From: Paenibacillus terricola
GTDB lineage: Bacteria > Bacillota > Bacilli > Paenibacillales > Paenibacillaceae
Assembly (NCBI RefSeq): GCF_014779765.1
Contig: NZ_JACXZA010000002.1
Span: 186,001 to 250,000 of the forward strand
Direction of reading: 5' to 3'
Length of the DNA: 64,000 bases
A model generated the notes under the pieces. It had not been told where the DNA came from and did not search any database. It saw nothing but the letters and a program-made list of their open reading frames with translations. Positions 39,450 to 64,000 of the stretch are shown here, in pieces; the first letter of the stretch is position 1; every line of letters begins with the position of its first letter. The position numbers and the translations under genes are program-made.

Positions 39450-39507
39450 TTACGAAACTATATCGTTGCCGCTCAACAGCGGCGAATAGGTAATACAATA
39501 GGCGACT

Positions 39508-39707
39508 TTCCTTCGGGGTGCGGTGAGATTCCGAACCGGCGGTGATCGTTGGAAGCTATTTATGCTACCGTATGTACGGCGCAAGCTTCCGGCGTCAGTC
39601 CGTGACCCGAAGTCTCGTAATATCTTTCGTGTCCTGCACGTAGAAGAGGCTTCGGTGGACCTGGTGCAATTCCGGGACCGACAGTATAGTCTGGATGGGA
39701 GAAGGGA
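39508..39707 (+). promoter_or_regulatory. FMN riboswitch (RFN element)
   Basis: The conserved RFN sequences are all visible: CTTCGGGG then GTGAGATTCCGAACCGGCGG, the AGTCCGTGACCCG segment, GGTGGACCTGGTGCAATTCC, and GACCGACAGTATAGTCTGGA near the 3' end. P1 would pair CCTTC (39510-39514) with GAAGG (39701-39705). A variable hairpin sits in the middle. FMN binding would stop expression of the downstream ribD-ribE-ribBA-ribH genes. Confidence 0.96.
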
Positions 39708-39846
39708 AGCATTCAACAAATACGCCATTCGTACGGGTTTCTTTGTCATCTTTGTTTATATAGATGATATCGTGACCCTCGCTTGCGTATGCTTTGAATG
39801 TTTTTCACAACACAATAACGCCAGCGTACCAGCGCAAGCGTTACCC

Positions 39847-54532: not shown

Positions 54533-55060
54533 TTGGGCAAAAATCGGAAGCCGATTCAGATCGTCATCTTGCTCGGCGTCTTGCTGCTCGGCGGATATGC
54601 GATCGGCAAGACGCTGTTTGCGTCTGACGATGGCCGTCCGGCAGTCGGTAAGGCGGCGCCGGATTTTACATTGCTTGATCTGAACGGTCAGACGCATCAG
54701 TTGGCAGATTACAAGGGCAAGGCAGTGGTCGTCAATTTCTGGGGATCATTCTGTCCGCCATGTGTCACGGAGATGCCGGAGTTTCAGCGTATGTATGACA
54801 AGTATAAGGACAAGTCTTTTGAAGTGCTGGCGATAAACCTAAGTGAAGACGATTTAACCGTCAACAACTTCGTCGGGGAGCGTTCGCTTACTTACCCGAT
54901 TCTAAGGGATGCGAATCGAGTCATTGAGCGCAAGTACGGATTATCGCAGTATCCAACCACGTTCTTCGTCAAGCCGGATGGCACGATTATGGACATCTTC
55001 GTCGGCGGGATGAGTGAACAAGACATCGATTCGCGGGTAGATCAGCTGCTGCAATCCTAG
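54533..55060 (+). CDS. resA: Thiol-disulfide oxidoreductase ResA
   Basis: ResA is a membrane-tethered thioredoxin-like protein facing the outside that reduces apocytochrome c cysteines before heme attachment. It has an N-terminal anchor (IVILLGVLLLGGYAIGKTL) and a TlpA/AhpC-like fold with the active-site Cys74-P-P-Cys77 in FWGSFCPPCVTEMP. The cis-proline loop QYPTTFFVKPDG is near 148. It starts at TTG 54533 behind GAGGTGAT, giving 175 residues. It is the first gene of resABCDE. Confidence 0.93.
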   Translation: MGKNRKPIQIVILLGVLLLGGYAIGKTLFASDDGRPAVGKAAPDFTLLDLNGQTHQLADYKGKAVVVNFWGSFCPPCVTEMPEFQRMYDKYKDKSFEVLAINLSEDDLTVNNFVGERSLTYPILRDANRVIERKYGLSQYPTTFFVKPDGTIMDIFVGGMSEQDIDSRVDQLLQS

Positions 55061-55108
55061 TTGTTCGCCTTCCATGCGAGAGTGAGGTTCAGAAGGAGGC
55101 TTTACGTT

Positions 55109-56737
55109 TTGTTTCAGAATACGAAGTGCGAATGCGGTCACCAGAATCCGCCGGACACGCTGCTCTGCGAGTCATGCGGCAAACCGCTTGTAGAATCAGA
55201 TGAGCCGCTAGAGATGCGGTATGACGGCGTAGCCAGACGGTCACAGAAGCGGAATCCGAACCCACTTGATCGGGTGTGGAACTTTTTCTCATCGGTTCGT
55301 ATCGCCGTTATCATCATCATTATTACACTGGTCGGTGCCTCTCTTGGTACGATTTATCCTCAGGGCAATAATGCAGAGTATTATAAAGAAGCGTACGGAT
55401 GGAGCGGAGAGCTGTATCATAAGATTGGGCTTTCCTCCATGTATGATTCCTGGTGGTTCGTCGGCCTGCTGGTTATGATTGGTACGTCGCTTGTCATCTG
55501 CAGTCTTGACCGGGTGCTTCCGCTCTATCGCGCCTTGAACAAGCAGCAGATTCGTAAGCATCTGCAATTCATTACACGCCAGAAGACTTCCTATGTCGGC
55601 GCTATTGAAGGGGATGCCGAGCAATGGGTGCAGTCGTTCGGTAACCATCTTAAGCGGCGCAGATACAAAGTACATATTAATGGCACTGCACTCCTCGCGG
55701 AGAAAAACCGATTCAGCCGCTGGGGCCCTTACATCAACCATATCGGTCTGATCATTCTGCTGCTCGCGCTGCTGGCTCGGACGATTCCGCATTGGACGGA
55801 AGAGAATACGATCGCTGTTCGCGACGGGGAGACCGTACAGGTTGCCGGTACTGACTACTATGTGAAGAACGATAAGTTCACTGTAGAGTACTATAATGAA
55901 ACCGAGCTGCCGGACAGGCTGAAGCAGCAGCAGCGTCCGAAGCTATATGAGACGCATGCTGTAATGTACGAATGCGTCAGCTCTTGCGATGAGCCGGGCA
56001 TTGAGCCAGAGCTCAAAGAAGTGAAGCAATACGAGATTACGGTAAACCATCCAATGAACTATAAGGGCGTAAAGCTCTATCAGATCGGTTACGATGATGA
56101 GCCGCTGTTGCAATCCGTTAAACCGGTTATCGAAGATGTGAAGACGGGGCAAAAGTACGGACCGTTCGATCTGCCGATGAAGAATCCGAAGACAAGCTTT
56201 GAGGTTGGTCCATACAGCTTGGAGCTGAAAGCGAATTACATGGAATTTGCTTTGAATGACGAAGGCAGTCCAGTTACGAAATCGCGGGATCCGAAAGCGC
56301 CAGCGTTCATCTTTATCGTGAAGGGACCAGGTCTTGACGAGAATGGCGAACCGTACATGTATTTCCCGCTTGAGAAAGATAAAGAACGTTTCAGTCAGGA
56401 TAAAATCAACCAAGCGATAGCGTCTAAGATTCAAATCCGGGTTGATGGCATGGACAATGTCAAGTTTAGCTCTTACACGAGCTACTTGTTAATCCGGGTC
56501 GACCGTGCGCTGCCATTCGTATGGGTTGGTCTTGGCATTTGTATGCTTGGCTTGTTGATGGGTGCCTATTGGCATCACCGCCGGATATGGCTGCGGATTG
56601 ATGACGGTACATTGTCGCTTGGCGCGCATACGAACAAAAACCATTTTGGCATGCGTTCGGAGACAACTTGGGCGCTTGAACAAATGGGCATTACGGTCGA
56701 GAGCGATAAGCTCGATAACGGGGGTTATAATTCGTGA
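55109..56737 (+). CDS. resB: Cytochrome c biogenesis protein ResB with N-terminal zinc ribbon
   Basis: ResB (Ccs1 family) works with ResC in heme export and attachment to cytochrome c. The protein has four hydrophobic segments (IAVIIIIITLVGASLGTIY; SWWFVGLLVMIGTSLVICS; HIGLIILLLALLARTI; LPFVWVGLGICMLGLLMG) and a large external domain between the last two. The first 21 residues contain the cysteine pattern CECGHQN..LCESCG, a likely cytosolic zinc ribbon not found in B. subtilis ResB. I start at TTG 55109, 10 bp after AAGGAGG (55093-55099), giving 542 residues. Confidence 0.93.
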   Translation: MFQNTKCECGHQNPPDTLLCESCGKPLVESDEPLEMRYDGVARRSQKRNPNPLDRVWNFFSSVRIAVIIIIITLVGASLGTIYPQGNNAEYYKEAYGWSGELYHKIGLSSMYDSWWFVGLLVMIGTSLVICSLDRVLPLYRALNKQQIRKHLQFITRQKTSYVGAIEGDAEQWVQSFGNHLKRRRYKVHINGTALLAEKNRFSRWGPYINHIGLIILLLALLARTIPHWTEENTIAVRDGETVQVAGTDYYVKNDKFTVEYYNETELPDRLKQQQRPKLYETHAVMYECVSSCDEPGIEPELKEVKQYEITVNHPMNYKGVKLYQIGYDDEPLLQSVKPVIEDVKTGQKYGPFDLPMKNPKTSFEVGPYSLELKANYMEFALNDEGSPVTKSRDPKAPAFIFIVKGPGLDENGEPYMYFPLEKDKERFSQDKINQAIASKIQIRVDGMDNVKFSSYTSYLLIRVDRALPFVWVGLGICMLGLLMGAYWHHRRIWLRIDDGTLSLGAHTNKNHFGMRSETTWALEQMGITVESDKLDNGGYNS

Positions 56738-57993
56738 ATTGGGTAGAGTTTAGCGGACATGCATACCTAGTTGCATTCGCCTTATATTGTTTCGCGTTTA
56801 TGTTTTATGTAATCGCAATTGCTGGTCAGCGCTGGAGTAACCGAGACTCCAAGAATCATACGCAGCGCTGGGGCCGAATTGCTTTCTTCACCTCGTCAGT
56901 GGGTCTTGCGGGTCACCTGACCTTCTTCTTCACTCGCTGGTACGGAAGCGGACAGATTCCTACTAGTAATATGTACGAATTCATGTCGTTTCTTGCGATG
57001 GCGATCATGATCGCCTTCACCATTATTTACTTGATTTATCGCAAGCCGATTCTCGGGATGTTCGCGACTCCGCTTGCTGTTATTATCGTAGCGTATGCAT
57101 CTGTATTCCCTAAGGATGTGCAGCCGCTCATCCCATCGCTTAACTCGTATTGGCTGAAGATTCACGTAACGACAGCTGCACTCGGCGAAGCATTCTTTGC
57201 AGTCGGTTTCGCAGCGGGACTTATGTATTTGCTTCGGGTGGTCGATTATACTCGTAAGGACGCTAAAGCCCGCAAAGAGCAGCGTTGGGTCGAGTTTACG
57301 CTTTATGTTATCGTTGTGGTCATCGGCTTCATCAGCATCGTCTTCTCGTTCCGCGGAGCGGGCTACGAAGCACATTTCACGCAAGAGAATGTGACTGTTG
57401 ACGAGCAAGGTCAGACCATCACAAGGGTCGAGCAGGTCCAATACGATCTGCCGCCAATCTTTAAGCCTTACAACAGCCAAGTGGTGTCGGTCGATTCCTT
57501 CCTTGGCATGAACAAGCCTTGGTTCGAGACGCCTTCTTGGATGAATGGCATTAACGCCGGCCGCAAGCTGAACACCGTTATCTGGTCGATTATTGCAGGT
57601 TCGTTGTTGTATGGACTGCTTCGCTTAGCGTTTCGTAAGCCGCTTGGTGCTGTCATTCATCCGTTTATGGATGGTGTTAAGCCCAGTGATCTCGACGAGA
57701 TCAGCTACCGCGCCATCGCCATCGGCTTCCCCGTGTTTACGCTCGGCGCACTCATCTTCGCGATGATCTGGGCGAACGAGGCGTGGGGCCGCTTCTGGGG
57801 ATGGGATCCGAAGGAAGTATGGGCGCTTATTACATGGCTATACTACAGCGTTTACTTGCACTTCCGCTTATCGCGCGGATGGCAGGGACTTCGTTCCGCA
57901 TGGCTGGCCGTTATCGGCTTCGTCATTGTGTGGTTCACGCTCATTGGCGTTAACCTCATTATCGCCGGCTTGCACTCGTATGCAGGTGTATAG
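56734..57993 (+). CDS. resC: Cytochrome c biogenesis protein ResC (CcsA/CcsB family)
   Basis: ResC is the heme-handling membrane partner of ResB. It has eight or so hydrophobic segments and the tryptophan-rich heme-binding WWD-like motif ANEAWGRFWGWDPKEVWALI near residue 347, plus conserved His residues in external loops (IHVTTAALGEAFFAVG and the C-terminal GLHSYAGV). It starts at GTG 56734, overlapping the resB stop (GTGA). The 419 residues include a long loop of about 70 residues after the fifth segment. Confidence 0.94.
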   Translation: MNWVEFSGHAYLVAFALYCFAFMFYVIAIAGQRWSNRDSKNHTQRWGRIAFFTSSVGLAGHLTFFFTRWYGSGQIPTSNMYEFMSFLAMAIMIAFTIIYLIYRKPILGMFATPLAVIIVAYASVFPKDVQPLIPSLNSYWLKIHVTTAALGEAFFAVGFAAGLMYLLRVVDYTRKDAKARKEQRWVEFTLYVIVVVIGFISIVFSFRGAGYEAHFTQENVTVDEQGQTITRVEQVQYDLPPIFKPYNSQVVSVDSFLGMNKPWFETPSWMNGINAGRKLNTVIWSIIAGSLLYGLLRLAFRKPLGAVIHPFMDGVKPSDLDEISYRAIAIGFPVFTLGALIFAMIWANEAWGRFWGWDPKEVWALITWLYYSVYLHFRLSRGWQGLRSAWLAVIGFVIVWFTLIGVNLIIAGLHSYAGV

Positions 57994-58027
57994 TCACCTA
58001 AATTATTGATAAAGGGGCCGTGTCTTT

Positions 58028-58744
58028 ATGACCGATTTCGCGCATCGCATATTAGTTGTAGACGACGAAGAGCGCATTCGCCGCTTGCTCAAAATGTACT
58101 TGGAGAAGGAAGGCTACGAGATCGAAGAAGCAGAGGATGGAGAAACTGCACTTCGAATGGCAGCGGGCAAAGATTATGATCTGATCATGCTCGACGTTAT
58201 GCTTCCGGGTATTGATGGCGTTGAAGTATGCTCCAGACTTCGCCAGGTGAAAGCTACGCCGGTTATTATGCTTACGGCTAAAGGCGAAGAAATGAACCGT
58301 GTGCAAGGGTTTGAGGCAGGCGCTGACGATTATGTTGTAAAACCGTTCAGCCCGCGTGAAGTGATCTATCGTGTGAAAGCGATCCTTCGCCGCTCATCGG
58401 CTACGGCTTTCCTCACGAAAGAATCGAATTCCAGCAACAACATCGTGCTTCCGCATCTCATTATCGAGCATGACGCACACCGTGTTATGGCAGGCGGGCA
58501 AGAGGTAAGCCTGACGCCTAAGGAGTACGAATTGCTGCACTATTTGGCTGTATCGCCGGACAAAGTATTCTCGCGTGAGGAGCTGCTGAAGGATGTATGG
58601 AACTATGAGTTCTTTGGCGACCTTCGCACCGTAGATACTCATGTAAAGCGTCTGCGCGAGAAGCTGAACAAAGTGTCGGTTGAAGCAGCTTCAATGATTA
58701 CTACGGTATGGGGCGTTGGTTATAAGCTTGAGGTATCGAAGTAA
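58028..58744 (+). CDS. resD: Response regulator ResD
   Basis: ResD is an OmpR/PhoB-type regulator that with ResE controls aerobic-to-anaerobic respiration genes, including resABC and ctaA in Bacillus. The receiver contains VVDDEER, phosphoacceptor Asp56 in LIMLDVMLPGIDG and Lys in VVKPFSPRE. The winged-helix output domain (about 140-238) includes LTPKEYELLHYLA and LRTVDTHVKRLREKL. AAAGGGG precedes ATG 58028. Confidence 0.95.
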   Translation: MTDFAHRILVVDDEERIRRLLKMYLEKEGYEIEEAEDGETALRMAAGKDYDLIMLDVMLPGIDGVEVCSRLRQVKATPVIMLTAKGEEMNRVQGFEAGADDYVVKPFSPREVIYRVKAILRRSSATAFLTKESNSSNNIVLPHLIIEHDAHRVMAGGQEVSLTPKEYELLHYLAVSPDKVFSREELLKDVWNYEFFGDLRTVDTHVKRLREKLNKVSVEAASMITTVWGVGYKLEVSK

Positions 58745-60223
58745 TTGATGAAGCTGGGATGGTTGTGGCGTAGTGTAGTCGGCAAGCTGTGGATGACGAT
58801 TATCGTGCTGGTAGCAGTCGTTCTGCTCATTCTAGGCATGTTCCTGCTTCAATATATCGATATTAACTTTCAGGACAACACCTCTCATCAGGTGAAAGTG
58901 CTGTTCATTGTTACCGGGATCATCGGGTTTCTGTTATCTACTTTTTTTGCTTTCTTCCTATCGTCCAAAATCACGCAACCGCTCATCGAGATGAAGAAAG
59001 CGGCTGCGTCGATTTCCGGGGGCGATTATGAGACGCGTGTTCCGATTCGTTCGACAGACGAGATTGGTGATCTGGCCCATGCATTCAACCGTATGGCACA
59101 TGATCTTGATTCGCTCATTAAAGATTTGAGCCTCGAGAAGAATCATCTCGCCAGCATCTTGCGCAGTATGTCTGATGCCGTCATCACGTTTGATGCAGAA
59201 GGCAATGTGACGATGTCCAACCCGCCAGGCGATAAGCTGATGGCGCATTGGAACTCGCTTGATTGGGCGGAGGATGAGGAGAACAACTCGCGACCAGGGG
59301 TGCCTAAGCCGCTGCTTGAGCTGTTCGGACATGTCATTGCAGAGGGCATAGATAGCAGTGACAAGATTCATTTCCTAAGCGGGGTTTGGTCGGTTGTCAT
59401 GGCACCGTTGAAATCGAATGATTCGGTTCGCGGTGCGGTTGCGGTAGTACGGGATGTAACCGAGGAGTTCAAGCTGGAGAAGCTGCGTCGTGATTTCGTT
59501 GCGAACGTGTCCCATGAGATTCGGACGCCGTTGTCGATGATGCAGGGCTACAGTGAAGCGCTGTTGGACGGATTCGCTGATTCGCCAGAAGAACGCGATG
59601 AGCTTGTTCAAGTGATTCACGACGAATCCGTTCGGATGGGTCGGCTTGTGAAAGACTTGCTTGATCTGGCGAGAATGGAGGCAGGGCATACGGAGCTTAA
59701 GCTTATGCCATGCAATATCGATGCACTTGCAAGGCGCGTTCATCGTAAGTTTATGGCGTTCGCCAAGGAACGTGATATTCGACTTCAATGCGAGCTTCCC
59801 GAGTCTCCTCCGCTTCATGTTCAGGCTGCGGATGAGGATCGGCTCGAACAAGTGTTAACGAATTTGTTGGATAACGCGTTAAGACATACGCCTAGCGGGG
59901 CAATGATTACGTTATCTGGCGCATGGGGACAGCAGGAACCAGGTCAGTCTGAACCTTCCAATGTGGTACTGCGGATTGCAGACGAAGGGGAAGGTATCCC
60001 AACGGATGATCTGCCGTACATTTTCGAGCGTTTCTACAAAGCGGATAAGTCACGTAAACGCGGTTCGTCGGGTGGCACAGGTCTTGGACTTGCGATTGTG
60101 AAGAACATCGTAGAAGGCCATCACGGCCGCATTCAAGTGGATAGTATGATCGGCAAAGGTACGACATTTACAATATTGCTTCCTGTCGATTTGAATCATC
60201 AGTTGTCAATGCGCTCATCATAA
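58745..60223 (+). CDS. resE: Sensor histidine kinase ResE
   Basis: This is the membrane kinase for ResD. There are two membrane segments (about 17-36 and 51-74) with only a short external loop between them, so sensing is probably cytoplasmic. A HAMP domain (about 75-127), a PAS domain (about 130-240), a HisKA domain with His257 in VSHEIRTPLSMMQGYSE, and the HATPase domain with LEQVLTNLLDNALRHTP and GTGLGLAIVKNIVEGH follow. The start is TTG 58745, directly after the resD stop; ATG 58748 is possible. Its stop codon lies within the terminator. Confidence 0.94.
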   Translation: MMKLGWLWRSVVGKLWMTIIVLVAVVLLILGMFLLQYIDINFQDNTSHQVKVLFIVTGIIGFLLSTFFAFFLSSKITQPLIEMKKAAASISGGDYETRVPIRSTDEIGDLAHAFNRMAHDLDSLIKDLSLEKNHLASILRSMSDAVITFDAEGNVTMSNPPGDKLMAHWNSLDWAEDEENNSRPGVPKPLLELFGHVIAEGIDSSDKIHFLSGVWSVVMAPLKSNDSVRGAVAVVRDVTEEFKLEKLRRDFVANVSHEIRTPLSMMQGYSEALLDGFADSPEERDELVQVIHDESVRMGRLVKDLLDLARMEAGHTELKLMPCNIDALARRVHRKFMAFAKERDIRLQCELPESPPLHVQAADEDRLEQVLTNLLDNALRHTPSGAMITLSGAWGQQEPGQSEPSNVVLRIADEGEGIPTDDLPYIFERFYKADKSRKRGSSGGTGLGLAIVKNIVEGHHGRIQVDSMIGKGTTFTILLPVDLNHQLSMRSS

Positions 60224-60237
60224 TGAGCGCTTTTTTT
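60211..60237 (+). terminator. Terminator overlapping the resE stop codon
   Basis: GCGCTCAT (60211-60218) and ATGAGCGC (60223-60230) form an 8-bp stem with the stop codon in the loop, followed by seven T. Confidence 0.88.
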
Positions 60238-60280
60238 GTTGGATTAAGGGGGTTAATATTGTTCAACGTGGAACATGTAT

Positions 60281-60312
60281 AGGGGCTCCGCCCCTTTAGA
60301 CCCCGTTTTTTT
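60281..60312. other. GC-rich hairpin with downstream T run
   Basis: AGGGGC/GCCCCT (60281-60295) forms a tight hairpin with a TCC loop. After ten more bases there are seven T (60306-60312). It may be a second terminator or part of the repeat region that follows. Confidence 0.4.
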
Positions 60313-60347
60313 ACGAAAAATTAATAATTAAAGAGTTAAAAATTTCT

Positions 60348-60570
60348 ACCCACCCAAACCCTCCCTGCAAGGGAGGGCCCCAAAGGTCGTGTGACCTCTG
60401 GACTCCTCACAAGGACGGTGTATTGGATTGGATGGATCGTGTGCCCGCACTTGCCGCTTTTAGCGGCAAAGCTTTTGTTTGGATGGGTCTAGATAAGGTA
60501 TAGCGTCTGCATGCATTTTCGTTCATGCCCATCAGTCACCGCCCATTGATGAAACAGTCGAATAATTGCA
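60348..60570. repeat. Structured repeat element, copy 1
   Basis: The element is closed by ACCCACCCAAAC (60348-60359) pairing with GTTTGGATGGGT (60477-60488), 11 of 12 bases complementary. Inside are the hairpins CCCTCCCT/AGGGAGGG, AGGTC/GACCT and TTGCCGCT/AGCGGCAA. The similarity to copy 2 continues to about 60570, beyond the closing stem. It has no credible coding content. Confidence 0.8.
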
Positions 60571-60583
60571 GCATAAATGATCT

Positions 60584-60842
60584 ACCCACCCAAACCCTCC
60601 CTGCAAGGGAGGGACCCAAAGGTCGTGAGCGTATGCTCCCGATGTGGTTTCCTCGCGGAAACCTTTACCTCTGGACTCCTCACAAGGACGATGTCTTGGA
60701 TTGGATGGATCGTGTGCCCGCAATTGCCGCTTTCAGCGGCAAAGCTTTTGTTTGGATGGGTTTAGATAAGGTATAGCAGCTGCATGCTTTTTCGTTCATG
60801 CTCACCAGTCACCGCCCATTGATGAAACAGTCGAGTAACTGC
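60584..60842. repeat. Structured repeat element, copy 2 (37 bp longer)
   Basis: It has the same closing stem (60584-60595 with 60750-60761) and hairpins as copy 1. The short AGGTC/GACCT hairpin is replaced by a longer arm carrying two extra hairpins, GAGC/GCTC and GGTTTCC/GGAAACC. The TTGCCGCT hairpin differs from copy 1 only in its loop. Confidence 0.8.
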
Positions 60843-60933
60843 CGTTTTTAGGAATATGGAGGATCGAATCGAAGCGCATATAAGAGAAGGGGAGAGTGAA
60901 GGAGTTTGTTGTACGAGCTATTCACATACAGAC

Positions 60934-60968
60934 AAAAAACGCCAGAGACATTTCGTCCCTGGCGTTTG
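60934..60968 (-). terminator. Terminator of serA
   Basis: AAACGCCAGAGAC (60937-60949) pairs with GTCCCTGGCGTTT (60955-60967) with one mismatch. On the minus strand it is followed by six T, 14 bases after the serA stop. Confidence 0.88.
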
Positions 60969-60981
60969 CATTATGACCATA

Positions 60982-62571
60982 TTACAGGCTGATCACTTTC
61001 GCTTTGTTCAGTTCTGGCAGTTTTACAATATCATCGATGACCGATGCTGGCACTTGCTTGTCGACTGTGAGCACCATGAGTGCGTCGCCGCCAGCAAGTT
61101 TGCGCCCAACTTGCATCGTTGCGATGTTGACATCGTTGTTGCCGAGCAATGTACCGACACTGCCGATAATGCCTGGTTTATCCGTATGCGACACGAGAAG
61201 GAGTTTGCCTTCTGGTGCGACGTCTACTGGATAACTGTCAATTTGAACGATACGTGGACCGTAGCCTGTCATCAGTGCTCCGGATACTGTACGCTCGACT
61301 TCCTCTGTGCGAAGGGTTACCGTCACGAGGTTCGTGAAGTCTTTTGCAACACTTGATTTGTTAACTACTACGTTTACGCTGCGCTCTTTCGCCAGGTGCA
61401 TCGAGTTAACAACATTGACTTGGTCTGCGCCGAGGTGGTGAGCAAGCACGCCGCGAACGACGTAACGATTAAGCGGTTGCGTATCAACTTCAGCCAGATC
61501 ACCTGCATAGCTAATGACAATCTCTTTTATTGCGCCAGCCGTCAGTTGTGCAATGAAGCTGCCCAGCTTCTCGCCGAGCGGGAAGTAAGGCTGCAGTACG
61601 CTGCGAACGTTCGCAGGGATAGGAGGCATGTTCACTGCGTTGATGAACGGCTCGTCACGCAGAATGTGGAGCACTTGCTCCGATACGTCGATTGCAACGT
61701 TCTCTTGAGCTTCAACCGTCGAAGCGCCAAGGTGAGGCGTTACGATGATTTTCGGATTCGTCAAGAATGGGTGATCCGGTGCCGGAGGCTCAACTTCGAA
61801 TACGTCGAATGCCGCGCCTGCTACGATACCTTGATCGATTGCTTCAACAAGCGCAAGCTCGTCGATGATGCCGCCGCGTGCACAGTTCACGATGCGCATG
61901 CCTGGCTTCATCACTTCGAATTGCTTACGCGAGATCATGTGGCGCGTTTCAGGCGTCAATGGCGTATGAACCGTCATGAAGTCTGCGTTGCGGATGATGT
62001 CGTCTACCGATGCAAGCTTAATGCCCATTTTTTCAGCGCGCTCTTCCGTCAGGAACGGATCGTAGCCGAGGATTTCCATGCCGAATGCTTTAGCGCGTTT
62101 AGCAACTTCGCTGCCGATACGGCCCATGCCCATAACGCCGAGCACTTTGTTGCGAAGCTCTACGCCGAGGAACGATTTGCGATCCCATACGCCGCCAACC
62201 GTCTTCAGGTAAGCTTGTGGAATGTGGCGAGCAACAGCCATCATCATCGCGAACGTATGTTCACAAGTCGTGATTGTGTTGCCGTCCGGTGCGTTGATAA
62301 CGATAATACCACGTTGAGTAGCAGCTTCCAGATCGATGTTGTCAACGCCTACGCCTGCACGGCCGACAACTTTCAGTTTCTTGCCTGCTTCCATGATGCG
62401 TGGTGTAACGCGTGTTTGGCTGCGAACGAGCAGAGCATCGTATTCGCCGATGATGGCAACGAGTTCGTCTTCGCTTAAACCAGGTTTTTTGTCAACGATA
62501 ACGTCTGATGCATCTACAAGCTTCTGAATGCCGAGGTCACTGATTGGATCCGATACTAACACTTTAAACAT
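60982..62571 (-). CDS. serA: D-3-phosphoglycerate dehydrogenase
   Basis: SerA oxidises 3-phosphoglycerate with NAD, the first step of serine synthesis. The 529-residue protein is the long form. The NAD-binding motif is GVMGMGRIGSEVAKRA near 145, catalytic Arg and Glu are in VNCARGGIID and VFEVEPP, and the catalytic His is in TPHLGAS. An intervening domain (about 315-450) and a C-terminal ACT domain (about 455-529, VSHTDKPGIIGSVGTLL) suggest serine feedback. AGGAGG precedes the ATG. It is the only long minus-strand metabolic gene here. Confidence 0.96.
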   Translation of the reverse strand: MFKVLVSDPISDLGIQKLVDASDVIVDKKPGLSEDELVAIIGEYDALLVRSQTRVTPRIMEAGKKLKVVGRAGVGVDNIDLEAATQRGIIVINAPDGNTITTCEHTFAMMMAVARHIPQAYLKTVGGVWDRKSFLGVELRNKVLGVMGMGRIGSEVAKRAKAFGMEILGYDPFLTEERAEKMGIKLASVDDIIRNADFMTVHTPLTPETRHMISRKQFEVMKPGMRIVNCARGGIIDELALVEAIDQGIVAGAAFDVFEVEPPAPDHPFLTNPKIIVTPHLGASTVEAQENVAIDVSEQVLHILRDEPFINAVNMPPIPANVRSVLQPYFPLGEKLGSFIAQLTAGAIKEIVISYAGDLAEVDTQPLNRYVVRGVLAHHLGADQVNVVNSMHLAKERSVNVVVNKSSVAKDFTNLVTVTLRTEEVERTVSGALMTGYGPRIVQIDSYPVDVAPEGKLLLVSHTDKPGIIGSVGTLLGNNDVNIATMQVGRKLAGGDALMVLTVDKQVPASVIDDIVKLPELNKAKVISL

Positions 62572-62772
62572 GTGGAAACTGCCTCCTGTCTGAATGTGAA
62601 AAGAATGGTGTTGCAGTGAATATGTAGGAAAAACTCCATGTTGGAGTCATTCGACCAATAGGATGATGACGAATTGGTTCGAGGAAAAACATCGTCTCAA
62701 TACGATAACGAGTATCGGAACGAAAGCCTGTCCAAGCGAAAAAATGATTCGTCATTTCTCATAACGCTTATT
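62572..62772 (-). promoter_or_regulatory. Leader of serA
   Basis: About 200 bases separate the candidate promoter from the serA start. They hold small inverted repeats, including ACTCCA/TGGAGT near 62634-62650 and CCAAT/ATTGG, but no T-box or riboswitch consensus that I recognise. Confidence 0.35.
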
Positions 62773-62802
62773 ATTTTAAAGTAGTTAACAGGTGGAATGC
62801 AA
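62773..62802 (-). promoter_or_regulatory. Candidate SigA promoter of serA
   Basis: Read on the minus strand, TTGCAT (62802-62797), an 18-base spacer and TAAAAT (62778-62773) give a fair promoter. Confidence 0.5.
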
Positions 62803-62811
62803 TGCCGAAAC

Positions 62812-62840
62812 TTGCCGATACGTGAATTTTCCGATATGAT
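62812..62840 (+). promoter_or_regulatory. SigA promoter of the rhodanese gene
   Basis: TTGCCG (62812-62817), a 17-base spacer and TATGAT (62835-62840) lie 30 bp before the GTG start, divergent from the serA promoter. Confidence 0.6.
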
Positions 62841-62870
62841 TCATTCAACGTCATAGGGAGGGAAAACGCT

Positions 62871-63197
62871 GTGAATCGATGGGAAAATATTGATGCGGAC
62901 AAGCTTCTAGAACGGCTTGCCAATGGATCGGTGAAGCCAGAACAAATCATTGACGTCCGCGAGCATCATGAATGGGACTATTATCGGCTTGAAGGAACAA
63001 CACATATTCCTATGAGTATCTTTCCGGAGCAGCTTGCTTCTATAACACAAGAAGAATCATGGTACATATTATGCGGACATGGTGTTCGTAGTGTAGCTGT
63101 ATGCCGCTATATGCAAGAAAACGGCTACGACGCGCTCCACAACATCGTGGGCGGCATCGCAGCCGTAGCAGAACTTAAAGGGTTTCAGTATGACTGA
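62871..63197 (+). CDS. Rhodanese-like domain protein
   Basis: This is a single-domain rhodanese (108 residues), a likely cytoplasmic sulfur carrier or sulfurtransferase. The N-terminal segment IIDVREHHEWDYYRLEG and the active-site loop with Cys68 in LCGHGVRSVAVCRYM are typical; NIVGGIAAV near the end is the usual WxGGhxxW-like position. It starts at GTG 62871 behind AGGGAGGG. It is monocistronic; the sulfur acceptor is unknown. Confidence 0.9.
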   Translation: MNRWENIDADKLLERLANGSVKPEQIIDVREHHEWDYYRLEGTTHIPMSIFPEQLASITQEESWYILCGHGVRSVAVCRYMQENGYDALHNIVGGIAAVAELKGFQYD

Positions 63198-63212
63198 TTA
63201 ATTATGTAGATG

Positions 63213-64000
63213 TTATGCTTCATCAGATAAGAAGAACGGCAACTGCGGAAGCAGCTGCTTCGCATATTGGTTCACCATGCTGCTCTTGAAATCTCCGCTG
63301 CGCACTGCTTTCGTATCAATCAACAGCTCGGAGATAGGACCAATTAGGTCGTACTTCAACTTAGCAGCTTGTCCCGAGCTAATGAATTCATCGATGCGGC
63401 TGCTCAAGTCCTGCGGATAGTAATTAACGACTGTGCCTGAAGCTAAGATGAGATCGGCGCTAAGTTTATTCTTTACGATAAGAGGCAGCGATTTCCATAC
63501 CGATATTTTCATCGTGCCAGGCAATTCGTTTACTTGTACAATGTCGGAATTGATCGTTCGAGCCCATTGAACCATTGCATTATAATAGGATTGCTGACCT
63601 TGCAGTGACTTGTTTACCGCTGATTTATAATCAGTGTCCTTGCGCATTGCGGCAAGAATCTGTGCAACAGATTGCCCCTCTTTGCTGGTAGACAGCCGTT
63701 TGGATACGGATTGGAATGATGCGATGCTCTTCAGCAACTGCTGCTGGGATTGTTCCAGCGGAGTAGATGTTGGCATGCTCACTGCCGATACTTCATTGAA
63801 TGTTTTCTGAGATAGAGAAGCCAGTCGTTTCAGCTCAGTAGGCAAATCGGTTGTTTGCCTTGCGTTTGCATTCTCGACAACTGCTATCCATTCGGATTGA
63901 AATTCACGATAAGGCATAAATACAGTATGATAGTAGGATACGAGATCTTGCTGCTGAAGCGTGCCTGAGACGGGCTTTTTATCCGTTGATTCTTTACTTG
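63213..64000 (-). CDS. Hypothetical protein, 5' end beyond the window
   Basis: The frame stays open from its stop (63213-63215) to the right edge, so the true start lies outside; ATG 63917 is probably internal. Upstream of it the frame reads on without a stop through LQQQDLVSYYHTVFMPYREF. The visible 262 residues are polar and helical, with Gln- and Ser-rich stretches (LEQSQQQLLKSIASFQSVSK) and no membrane segment. A secreted or lipoprotein start upstream is possible but not visible. I do not recognise the family. Confidence 0.6.
   Translation of the reverse strand, partial: SKESTDKKPVSGTLQQQDLVSYYHTVFMPYREFQSEWIAVVENANARQTTDLPTELKRLASLSQKTFNEVSAVSMPTSTPLEQSQQQLLKSIASFQSVSKRLSTSKEGQSVAQILAAMRKDTDYKSAVNKSLQGQQSYYNAMVQWARTINSDIVQVNELPGTMKISVWKSLPLIVKNKLSADLILASGTVVNYYPQDLSSRIDEFISSGQAAKLKYDLIGPISELLIDTKAVRSGDFKSSMVNQYAKQLLPQLPFFLSDEA

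What the first reader, a model, noticed from the sequence alone, without database searches (positions are those of the whole stretch)
60348..60842. Tandem pair of structured elements with a conserved 12-bp closing stem and a variable hairpin arm
Two copies lie between resE and serA. Each is bounded by ACCCACCCAAAC and GTTTGGATGGGT, which pair at 11 of 12 positions. Within, CCCTCCCT/AGGGAGGG and TTGCCGCT/AGCGGCAA are kept, and the latter differs between copies only in its loop. Copy 2 is 37 bp longer: the small AGGTC/GACCT hairpin is replaced by an arm with two new hairpins that is still closed by AGGT/ACCT. Conserved pairing with an exchangeable arm suggests a structured RNA or a palindromic mobile element (MITE-like) rather than a gene. 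The duplicated segment also includes about 80 bp of 3' flank.
Basis: partly seen in the sequence, partly recalled or inferred. Interest (0 to 1): 0.75.

Follow-up and report, generated by a model that had tools for sequence, protein, structure and literature searches.

The report
Modular triplex-capped repeats in Paenibacillus
The two look-alike DNA segments between resE and serA are an insertion belonging to a large family of non-coding, hairpin-rich modular repeats in Paenibacillus and its relatives, each starting with a short motif that could fold into a triple helix; the general kind is known, and in some species single copies sit at fixed, conserved places next to housekeeping genes.

Summary
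The two copies are real, but the title feature is not general. They belong to a repeat family with 144 model matches in this genome, present in 126 of 197 sampled genomes of the bacterial family and in none outside it among 299 sampled from the class.

The conserved part is a ~59-nt cap: leader CCCWCCC-AAA plus hairpins P1 and P2, which covary. The 12-bp closing stem is confined to these two copies: 25 other type-A copies pair at 5-8 of 12. Leader and P1 change in mirror fashion, keeping purine-motif triads (204 of 213), as in published class II intrastrand triplex motifs (PMC4666352). Exchangeable, sometimes tandem bodies follow, as in BOX elements (PMC3049150).

The resE-serA insertion is absent from five of five genus mates. 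In another genus the cap is single-copy between argG and argH in 10 of 16 species, 5-24 nt from the argH start.

Best reading: a BOX-like, once-mobile composite repeat with a triplex-motif cap, gained recently here; a few old copies elsewhere look functionally retained. Mobilising enzyme unknown.

The parts
60281..60304 (+). P0 hairpin AGGGGCTCCGCCCCTTTAGACCCC upstream of the first cap; first feature of the DNA absent from the genus mate
   Evidence: 1 match in window, 0.02 expected; such hairpins are in 34 of 70 element-bearing intergenic regions against 2 of 356 without; with a wider pattern, 48 of 56 upstream ones are in the forward orientation, 8 unreadable, none reversed; insertion boundary at 60279/60280
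60305..60344 (.). AT-rich spacer between P0 and cap 1
   Evidence: sequence; similar AT-rich stretches precede many copies
60345..60377 (+). cap 1: TCTA, leader CCCACCC (60349-60355), AAA, P1 arms CCCTCCCT (60359-60366) and AGGGAGGG (60370-60377). On the minus strand CCCTCCCT-TGC-AGGGAGGG-TTT-GGGTGGGT, a class II intrastrand triplex motif of 8 triads
   Evidence: triads read from sequence; family test
60380..60401 (+). P2 hairpin, short form, of unit 1
60402..60574 (+). type-A body of unit 1, with the TTGCCGCT/AGCGGCAA hairpin (60451-60469) and the conserved end CACCGCCCATTGATG; right end approximate
60477..60488 (+).
60581..60613 (+). cap 2, same as cap 1
60616..60674 (+). P2 of unit 2, long form: stem AGGT/ACCT enclosing two hairpins (shared exchange module)
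60675..60846 (+). type-A body of unit 2; right end of the unit approximate
60847..60922 (.). zone holding the right limit of the inserted DNA; alignment to the genus mate resumes clearly at 60923, by the serA terminator

Best explanation
The 60281-60846 segment is a composite, non-coding repeat: a P0 hairpin, an AT-rich spacer and two tandem capped units. It entered the resE-serA intergenic region after this species split from its sequenced genus mates. It belongs to a Paenibacillaceae family built like pneumococcal BOX elements: a conserved cap, an exchangeable P2 arm and interchangeable bodies that can repeat in tandem. In some relatives there are inverted caps at both ends, mostly with a tandem array between them. 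The cap is a homopurine/homopyrimidine mirror repeat beside a hairpin and fits a class II (purine-motif) intrastrand triplex motif. Shown: family, modularity, covariation, mirror co-change, presence here and absence in genus mates, near absence from divergent gene gaps. Inferred: spread as a non-autonomous element using an unidentified enzyme acting in trans; cap folding on single-stranded DNA as the recognised structure; placement behind genes because it is harmless there. A few old copies in other genera, at fixed places beside start codons, look retained for a function.
For: Copy number: 62 BLAST places, 107 pattern matches against 2 for the reversed control, 144 model matches with only 150 of 1459 candidates scored. 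Spread: 126 of 197 family genomes, 12 of 19 genera; 25 of 299 class genomes, all 25 in this family. Pairing: covariation score 0.239 against 0.112 shuffled, 0 of 500 shuffles as high; 60 double-changed cells against 21. Mirror triads: 204 of 213 allowed; shuffles mean 171, maximum 190 in 2000 runs; co-changes at cols 11/15, 5/21, 4/22, 8/18 and one triple change at leader col 7 with arm cols 19 and 79. Insertion: the serA neighbourhood was recovered in 5 of 5 genus mates with no cap in the 1500 nt behind serA; flank 87 of 99 identical to the nearest up to 60279. Modularity: bodies repeated up to six times, tandem capped units of 151-155 bp, two-cap elements of 493-1085 bp in 10 loci, 9 of these 10 with a tandem array of period 59-130. 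Location: 0 of 105 in genes, 1 of 77 sites divergent against 96 of 426 background intergenic regions, p 5e-7.
Against: No transposase with matching ends was found and no target-site duplication was seen. Vertical conservation at argG-argH (10 of 16 species), at uvrB-uvrA in two genera (6 of 6 loci) and at other junctions is not what a purely parasitic element predicts. The triplex was not observed; the authors of the published motif state that their data do not support stable triplex in vivo (PMC4666352, Discussion part 1). The direct-repeat register also exceeds its own shuffles (168 of 187 against a mean of 150, 0 of 2000 as high). Copies are related, so shuffle results are not probabilities.
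Confidence: 0.72

Rival explanations
1. A cis-acting mRNA element: in gene-sense orientation (reverse complement of the reader's strand) the cap lies just ahead of the next gene's ribosome-binding site, and P1, the second G-rich stretch (triplex or G-quadruplex) and the Shine-Dalgarno region compete, tuning expression of the second gene of a gene pair. The many copies in this genome are an amplified offshoot.
For: argG|cap|argH single-copy in 10 of 16 species of one genus, argG found upstream in 10 of 10, cap end 5-24 nt from ATG. Cap+P1+P2 49 of 56 columns invariant against 68 of 190 and 22 of 80 in the rest of the alignment. 32 of 59 caps outside the window's genus have a ribosome-binding-site-like start of an ORF of at least 100 aa within 80 nt, against 1-6 of 59 in four controls. 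Genes behind the cap include argH, uvrA, aspS, a HAD phosphatase and a flagellar rod gene.
Against: Targets share no evident pathway. In the window's genome only 13 of 105 copies meet the same test. P1/P2 and body wobble counts do not clearly favour one strand. No Rfam match at gathering score. Many of the 59 loci are orthologous and not independent.
Confidence: 0.2
2. A REP/REPIN or IS200/IS605-type element moved by a Y1 transposase (RAYT).
For: Hairpin units, intergenic location, inverted pairs, excess on one strand (convergent sites 21 on the C-rich strand, 5 on the other, p 0.0025).
Against: No Y1_Tnp domain in 6 of 6 genomes of the genus; the same search rings in 5 of 14 control genomes.
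Confidence: 0.04
3. A G-quadruplex element: GGGAGGGTTTGGGTGGG is the conserved feature.
For: The cap 17-mer fits a three-tetrad motif in most copies of this genome.
Against: A sub-lineage (ACCTAAATCCTCCCT) and the CCCCCTAAATCCCCC caps lose the four G3 runs but keep P1 and the mirror triads.
Confidence: 0.04

Closest known systems
Class II intrastrand triplex motif (ITM/PIT; TMECO), Holder et al. 2015, PMC4666352 (seen: abstract, introduction, passages, sections 16 and 18, part 1 of 2 of the discussion)
   Same: C-rich stem, short loop, G-rich stem, 3-nt loop, G-rich stem; purine-motif triads; multi-copy, intergenic, sometimes in inverted pairs.
   Different: 7-8 nt stems (CCCTCCC) instead of the 9-nt TMECO pattern; here the motif is the end module of a larger composite with P2 and bodies; the paper's main text has 0 occurrences of Paenibacillus or Firmicutes.
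BOX elements of Streptococcus pneumoniae and S. suis, Croucher et al. 2011, PMC3049150 (seen: abstract and passages)
   Same: End module plus variable number of tandem inner modules; highly paired; intergenic; over-represented between convergent genes; several module sets.
   Different: No sequence relation tested; most copies in this genome have one cap only; the cap is a mirror repeat; sites in tandem gaps are mostly opposed to the genes (38 against 12).
MITEs / BIME-REP / Correia / NIME elements (as described in the Background passages of PMC3049150)
   Same: Small, non-coding, palindromic, multi-copy.
   Different: No partner transposase, target duplication or RAYT found here.

Membership tests
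Class II intrastrand triplex motif | Y-stem, loop 1-6, R-stem, loop 1-6, third stem of 6-15 nt with G.G-C, A.A-T or T.A-T triads, at most one mismatch | tested here: met
   Both window caps: 8 of 8 triads, loops of 3 nt, read; family 204 of 213 triads. Some caps have a loop 1 longer than 6 nt as aligned.
Class II intrastrand triplex motif | Folds as a triplex in vitro | not testable with these tools
   Needs CD/NMR
TMECO | CCCTCNCCCN3-6GGGNGAGGGN3GGGNGAGGG | tested here: not met
   Window cap has CCCTCCCT/AGGGAGGG/GGGTGGGT
BOX element | End modules with a variable tandem array of inner modules | tested here: met
   (family level; the window units are single-body)
BOX element | Sequence homology to boxA/boxB/boxC | not tested
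   No BOX model was run; works like, not filed as, BOX
MITE | Terminal inverted repeats | tested here: inconclusive
   Inverted caps at both ends in loci of another genus; window copies have one cap and a 12-nt inverted match not conserved in the family
MITE | Target-site duplication | tested here: inconclusive
   None seen against the genus mate, but the right boundary is blurred
REPIN/RAYT, IS200/IS605 | Y1 transposase in the genome | tested here: not met
   0 of 6 genomes, controls 5 of 14
HEARO/OMEGA RNA | Rfam match or IscB/IsrB partner | tested here: inconclusive
   No Rfam match at gathering score and only unrelated sub-threshold hits; RRXRR 0 of 6 but the control was silent
Any Rfam family | Score above gathering threshold over the element | tested here: not met
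   (window); at E up to 10 gave two far-below-threshold hits (17.9 of 45 and 11.8 of 39 bits)

The most novel reading that the evidence does not exclude
The cap is a triple-helix/hairpin switch that was captured as a translation or transcription control ahead of housekeeping genes such as argH and uvrA in several Paenibacillaceae genera. It is a natural, selected intrastrand triplex with a gene-regulatory role, from which a mobile repeat family was amplified in one genus.
Probability: 0.17. Interest if true: 0.8.

Novelty: new variant of a known kind. Interest (0 to 1): 0.5.

Why it matters
Intrastrand triplex motifs are described as abundant sequence patterns linked to genome instability, with no gene-regulatory role found for the best-studied one (PMC4666352, sections 18 and 20 as read). 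Here the third strand and the hairpin change together, which is evolutionary evidence that the three-strand relation itself is kept. The same motif caps a modular repeat and sits, single-copy and conserved, 5-24 nt ahead of argH in ten species. That gives a clean, single-locus place to test whether such a motif does anything in a cell.

Tried and rejected
Rejected: the 12-bp closing stem as a family feature. Rfam families for window and other copies (only sub-threshold, unrelated hits over the element). Y1/RAYT mobilisation. IscB/IsrB RNA (control silent, so weak). Carriage by phages or viral contigs (none for the window's cap or element); plasmid hits were two P. cellulosilyticus replicons. 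G-quadruplex as the constraint (variants). tRNA gene nearby (none in 55000-64000). Strand of a putative RNA from wobble pairs: undecided. Covariation inside type A alone: only 1 of 33 pairs changed on both sides, because the copies are too alike. Fine search for a right-hand insertion boundary: blurred. Four paper searches naming Paenibacillus listed no title on this family; listings were cut (20 of 92, 15 of 361, 1 of 1, 10 of 64), so this says little about absence from print.

Caveats on counts: the 105 catalogued copies are those with the cap at up to 2 mismatches in 64 fetched regions, chosen from the places listed (the list was cut) of 107. In one search, 17 of 105 were set aside (long arm, palindromes, stub, poor parse). 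In one search, 7 of 36 copies that are not type A were dropped; the pairing test also leaves out two frame-shifted rows of 29. In one search, 98 of 105 caps of this genome and 90 of 91 others were parsed, 28 distinct. The 77 sites include palindromes counted on both strands. In one search, 59 of the 91 matches were tested (lower-scoring second caps and duplicate loci left out). The gene caller was my own script. The intergenic background comes from the same fetched regions and includes element-bearing gaps. E-values of model R1 are rough; the family and class searches scored at most 28 and 18 candidates a genome. In one search argG was seen by motif in only 2 of 10 loci; one search then found it by tblastn in 10 of 10.

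Full report
What was claimed and what is there. The two copies are real and fold better than shuffles. The window is contig C10:186001-250000 of a 6.78-Mb genome. The genes on either side are resE (58745-60223, +; name taken from the finding) and serA (60982-62571, -; orthologues).

A family, not a pair. The whole element gives 62 places in the genome. The cap pattern with up to 2 mismatches gives 107, against 2 for the reversed control. A covariance model of the cap (R1) gives 144 with only 150 of 1459 candidates scored. All 6 genomes of the genus have a match. In a wider sample 126 of 197 genomes and 12 of 19 genera of the family have it, and 25 of 299 genomes of the class, all 25 in this family (strict filters).

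Anatomy. P0 is not before every copy: it occurs in 34 of 70 element-bearing intergenic regions and in 2 of 356 others. Upstream of caps 48 of 56 such hairpins are forward, 8 unreadable, none reversed; downstream 9 forward, 2 reversed, 8 unreadable. P2 comes in a short form and a long form with two extra hairpins; the long form recurs in 11 of 105 copies of several body types, so the exchangeable arm of the finding is a true, shared module. Bodies fall in at least three types. Type A is that of the window. Type B (..GGAGTCGYGTG[hairpin]CACAACTTTTGTTCGAGC) was found 63 times by a loose pattern and repeats up to six times in a row. Type C starts with CACACCC. Whole capped units also stand in tandem, six of 155 bp and four of 151-154 bp.

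The closing stem. Of 27 aligned type-A copies, only the two of the window pair 11 of 12; the rest reach 5-8. It looks like local substitution in GTTCGGATGAATCTAG-like sequence (the form in two other copies), shared by the two copies because they are tandem duplicates.

Covariation. On 40 distinct cap modules P1+P2 show a covariation score of 0.239 against 0.112 shuffled (0 of 500 as high) and 60 double-changed cells against 21; sliding the register by 1 to 3 columns lowers the score to 0.105 or less. On 69 further distinct caps from other genera seven of eight P1 pairs are Watson-Crick in 68-69 sequences each and the eighth in 59 of 68, with C-G/T-A exchanges at several positions. Wobble counts do not single out a strand.

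Mirror symmetry. Leader and P1 5' arm read as mirror images around AAA: CCCTCCC-AAA-CCCTCCC, TCCCCCT-AAA-TCCCCCT, TCTCCCT-AAA-TCCCTCT, CCCCTCCT-AAA-TCCTCCCC. On the other strand this is the layout of a purine-motif intrastrand triplex: hairpin, 3-nt loop, and a third strand antiparallel to the purine arm. Allowed triads (G.G-C, A.A-T, T.A-T): 204 of 213 in the mirror register; leader shuffles average 171 with maximum 190 in 2000; registers one off give 109 of 187 and 105 of 185; the direct-repeat register gives 168 of 187, also above its own shuffles. One cap differs from its kin by a change at leader, arm and partner together (ATCTCCCT/TCCCTCTT/AAGAGGGA). Exceptions exist (nine triads). Variants that break a G-quadruplex keep the triads. 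The same class of motif is described, with CD and NMR evidence in vitro and without support for stable folding in vivo, in PMC4666352 (abstract, introduction, passages, sections 16, 18 and part 1 of 20 seen).

Insertion here. In all five genus mates the region beside serA was recovered and holds no cap in the 1500 nt behind serA; serA is 98% identical in the nearest. Alignment to that mate runs from resE to 60279 (87 of 99 identical) and resumes at 60923 (three mates aligned, the two more distant ones also lose alignment by 60275-60276). The extra DNA therefore begins at P0 and holds both units, and it replaces a short stretch; no duplication of the target was seen. The tandem pair is thus a lineage-specific gain.

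Where copies sit in this genome. None of 105 catalogued copies lies in a predicted gene. Of 77 sites, 38 are in tandem gaps with the element opposed to the genes, 12 in tandem gaps along them (p 0.0003), 26 convergent and 1 divergent; background gaps of at least 100 bp in the same regions are 270 tandem, 96 divergent, 60 convergent. At convergent sites the element strand is the C-rich, probably lagging one in 21 of 26 (p 0.0025). Gene orientation and replication strand are confounded elsewhere. Avoidance of promoters and tolerance behind genes can explain much of this, as argued for BOX in PMC3049150 (passages).

Old copies elsewhere. In one genus the cap is single-copy in 10 of 16 species, with argH behind it in 10 of 10 and argG before it in 10 of 10, its end 5-24 nt from the argH ATG. 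There the cap modules are invariant at 49 of 56 columns, against 68 of 190 and 22 of 80 in the rest. Six species of that genus have none. In others it lies between uvrB and uvrA (two genera, 6 of 6 loci), hisS and aspS (L193), ffh and rpsP (L192, L197), a pseudouridine synthase and a HAD phosphatase (L184), and two flagellar rod-like genes (L186) (one or two loci of each pair were named by profile, sister loci by eye). Outside the window's genus 32 of 59 caps have a ribosome-binding-site-like ORF start within 80 nt, controls 1, 4, 4 and 6 of 59; in this genome 13 of 105. These are largely orthologous sites, so the count overstates independence. Ten two-cap elements of 493-1085 bp were read in another genus, 9 of 10 with a tandem array between the inverted caps. 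Of 11 loci searched, 3 have a T-box leader above Rfam's threshold next to the element; by eye several others have T-box-like sequence there. The eleventh locus (L240) simply has a thioredoxin-like gene, recognised by eye, between two caps.

Judgement. The general kind is known twice over: modular interspersed repeats and intrastrand triplex motifs. Their combination, the mirror co-change, and single-copy conserved placement ahead of housekeeping genes are the new points. Spread by an unknown enzyme in trans is inferred, not shown. A regulatory role of the old copies is possible and testable.

Noticed in passing
window 39505-39710: FMN riboswitch (RF00050, 94 bits), the only Rfam match of the window at gathering threshold.
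   Followed up: no
L134 from 8234, L081 from 7998 (G000): Palindromes of the cap (TCTACCCACCCAAACCCTCCCT..AGGGAGGGTTTGGGTGGGTAGA): minimal two-cap derivatives.
   Followed up: partly
L004, L011, L071, L074, L080, L109 just upstream of caps: Solo ~25-nt cap stubs such as TCTACCCACCCAAACCCTCAGGAGT directly before full caps.
   Followed up: no
L241-L250: Two-cap elements with internal tandem arrays in another Paenibacillaceae genus, beside T-box leaders in at least 3 loci; array length varies between species.
   Followed up: partly
L249 2996-3066: The CCCCCTAAATCCCCC cap resembles short stretches in plasmids of cyanobacteria (17 of 19 plasmid records hit), at weak E-values of 1e-3 to 0.5; the pattern also occurs in 11 viral stretches. 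Convergence or a wider family is open.
   Followed up: partly
G000 C11:9676-10510 and C3:39442-39958: Head-to-tail arrays of complete type-B units, six of 155 bp and four of 151-154 bp.
   Followed up: no
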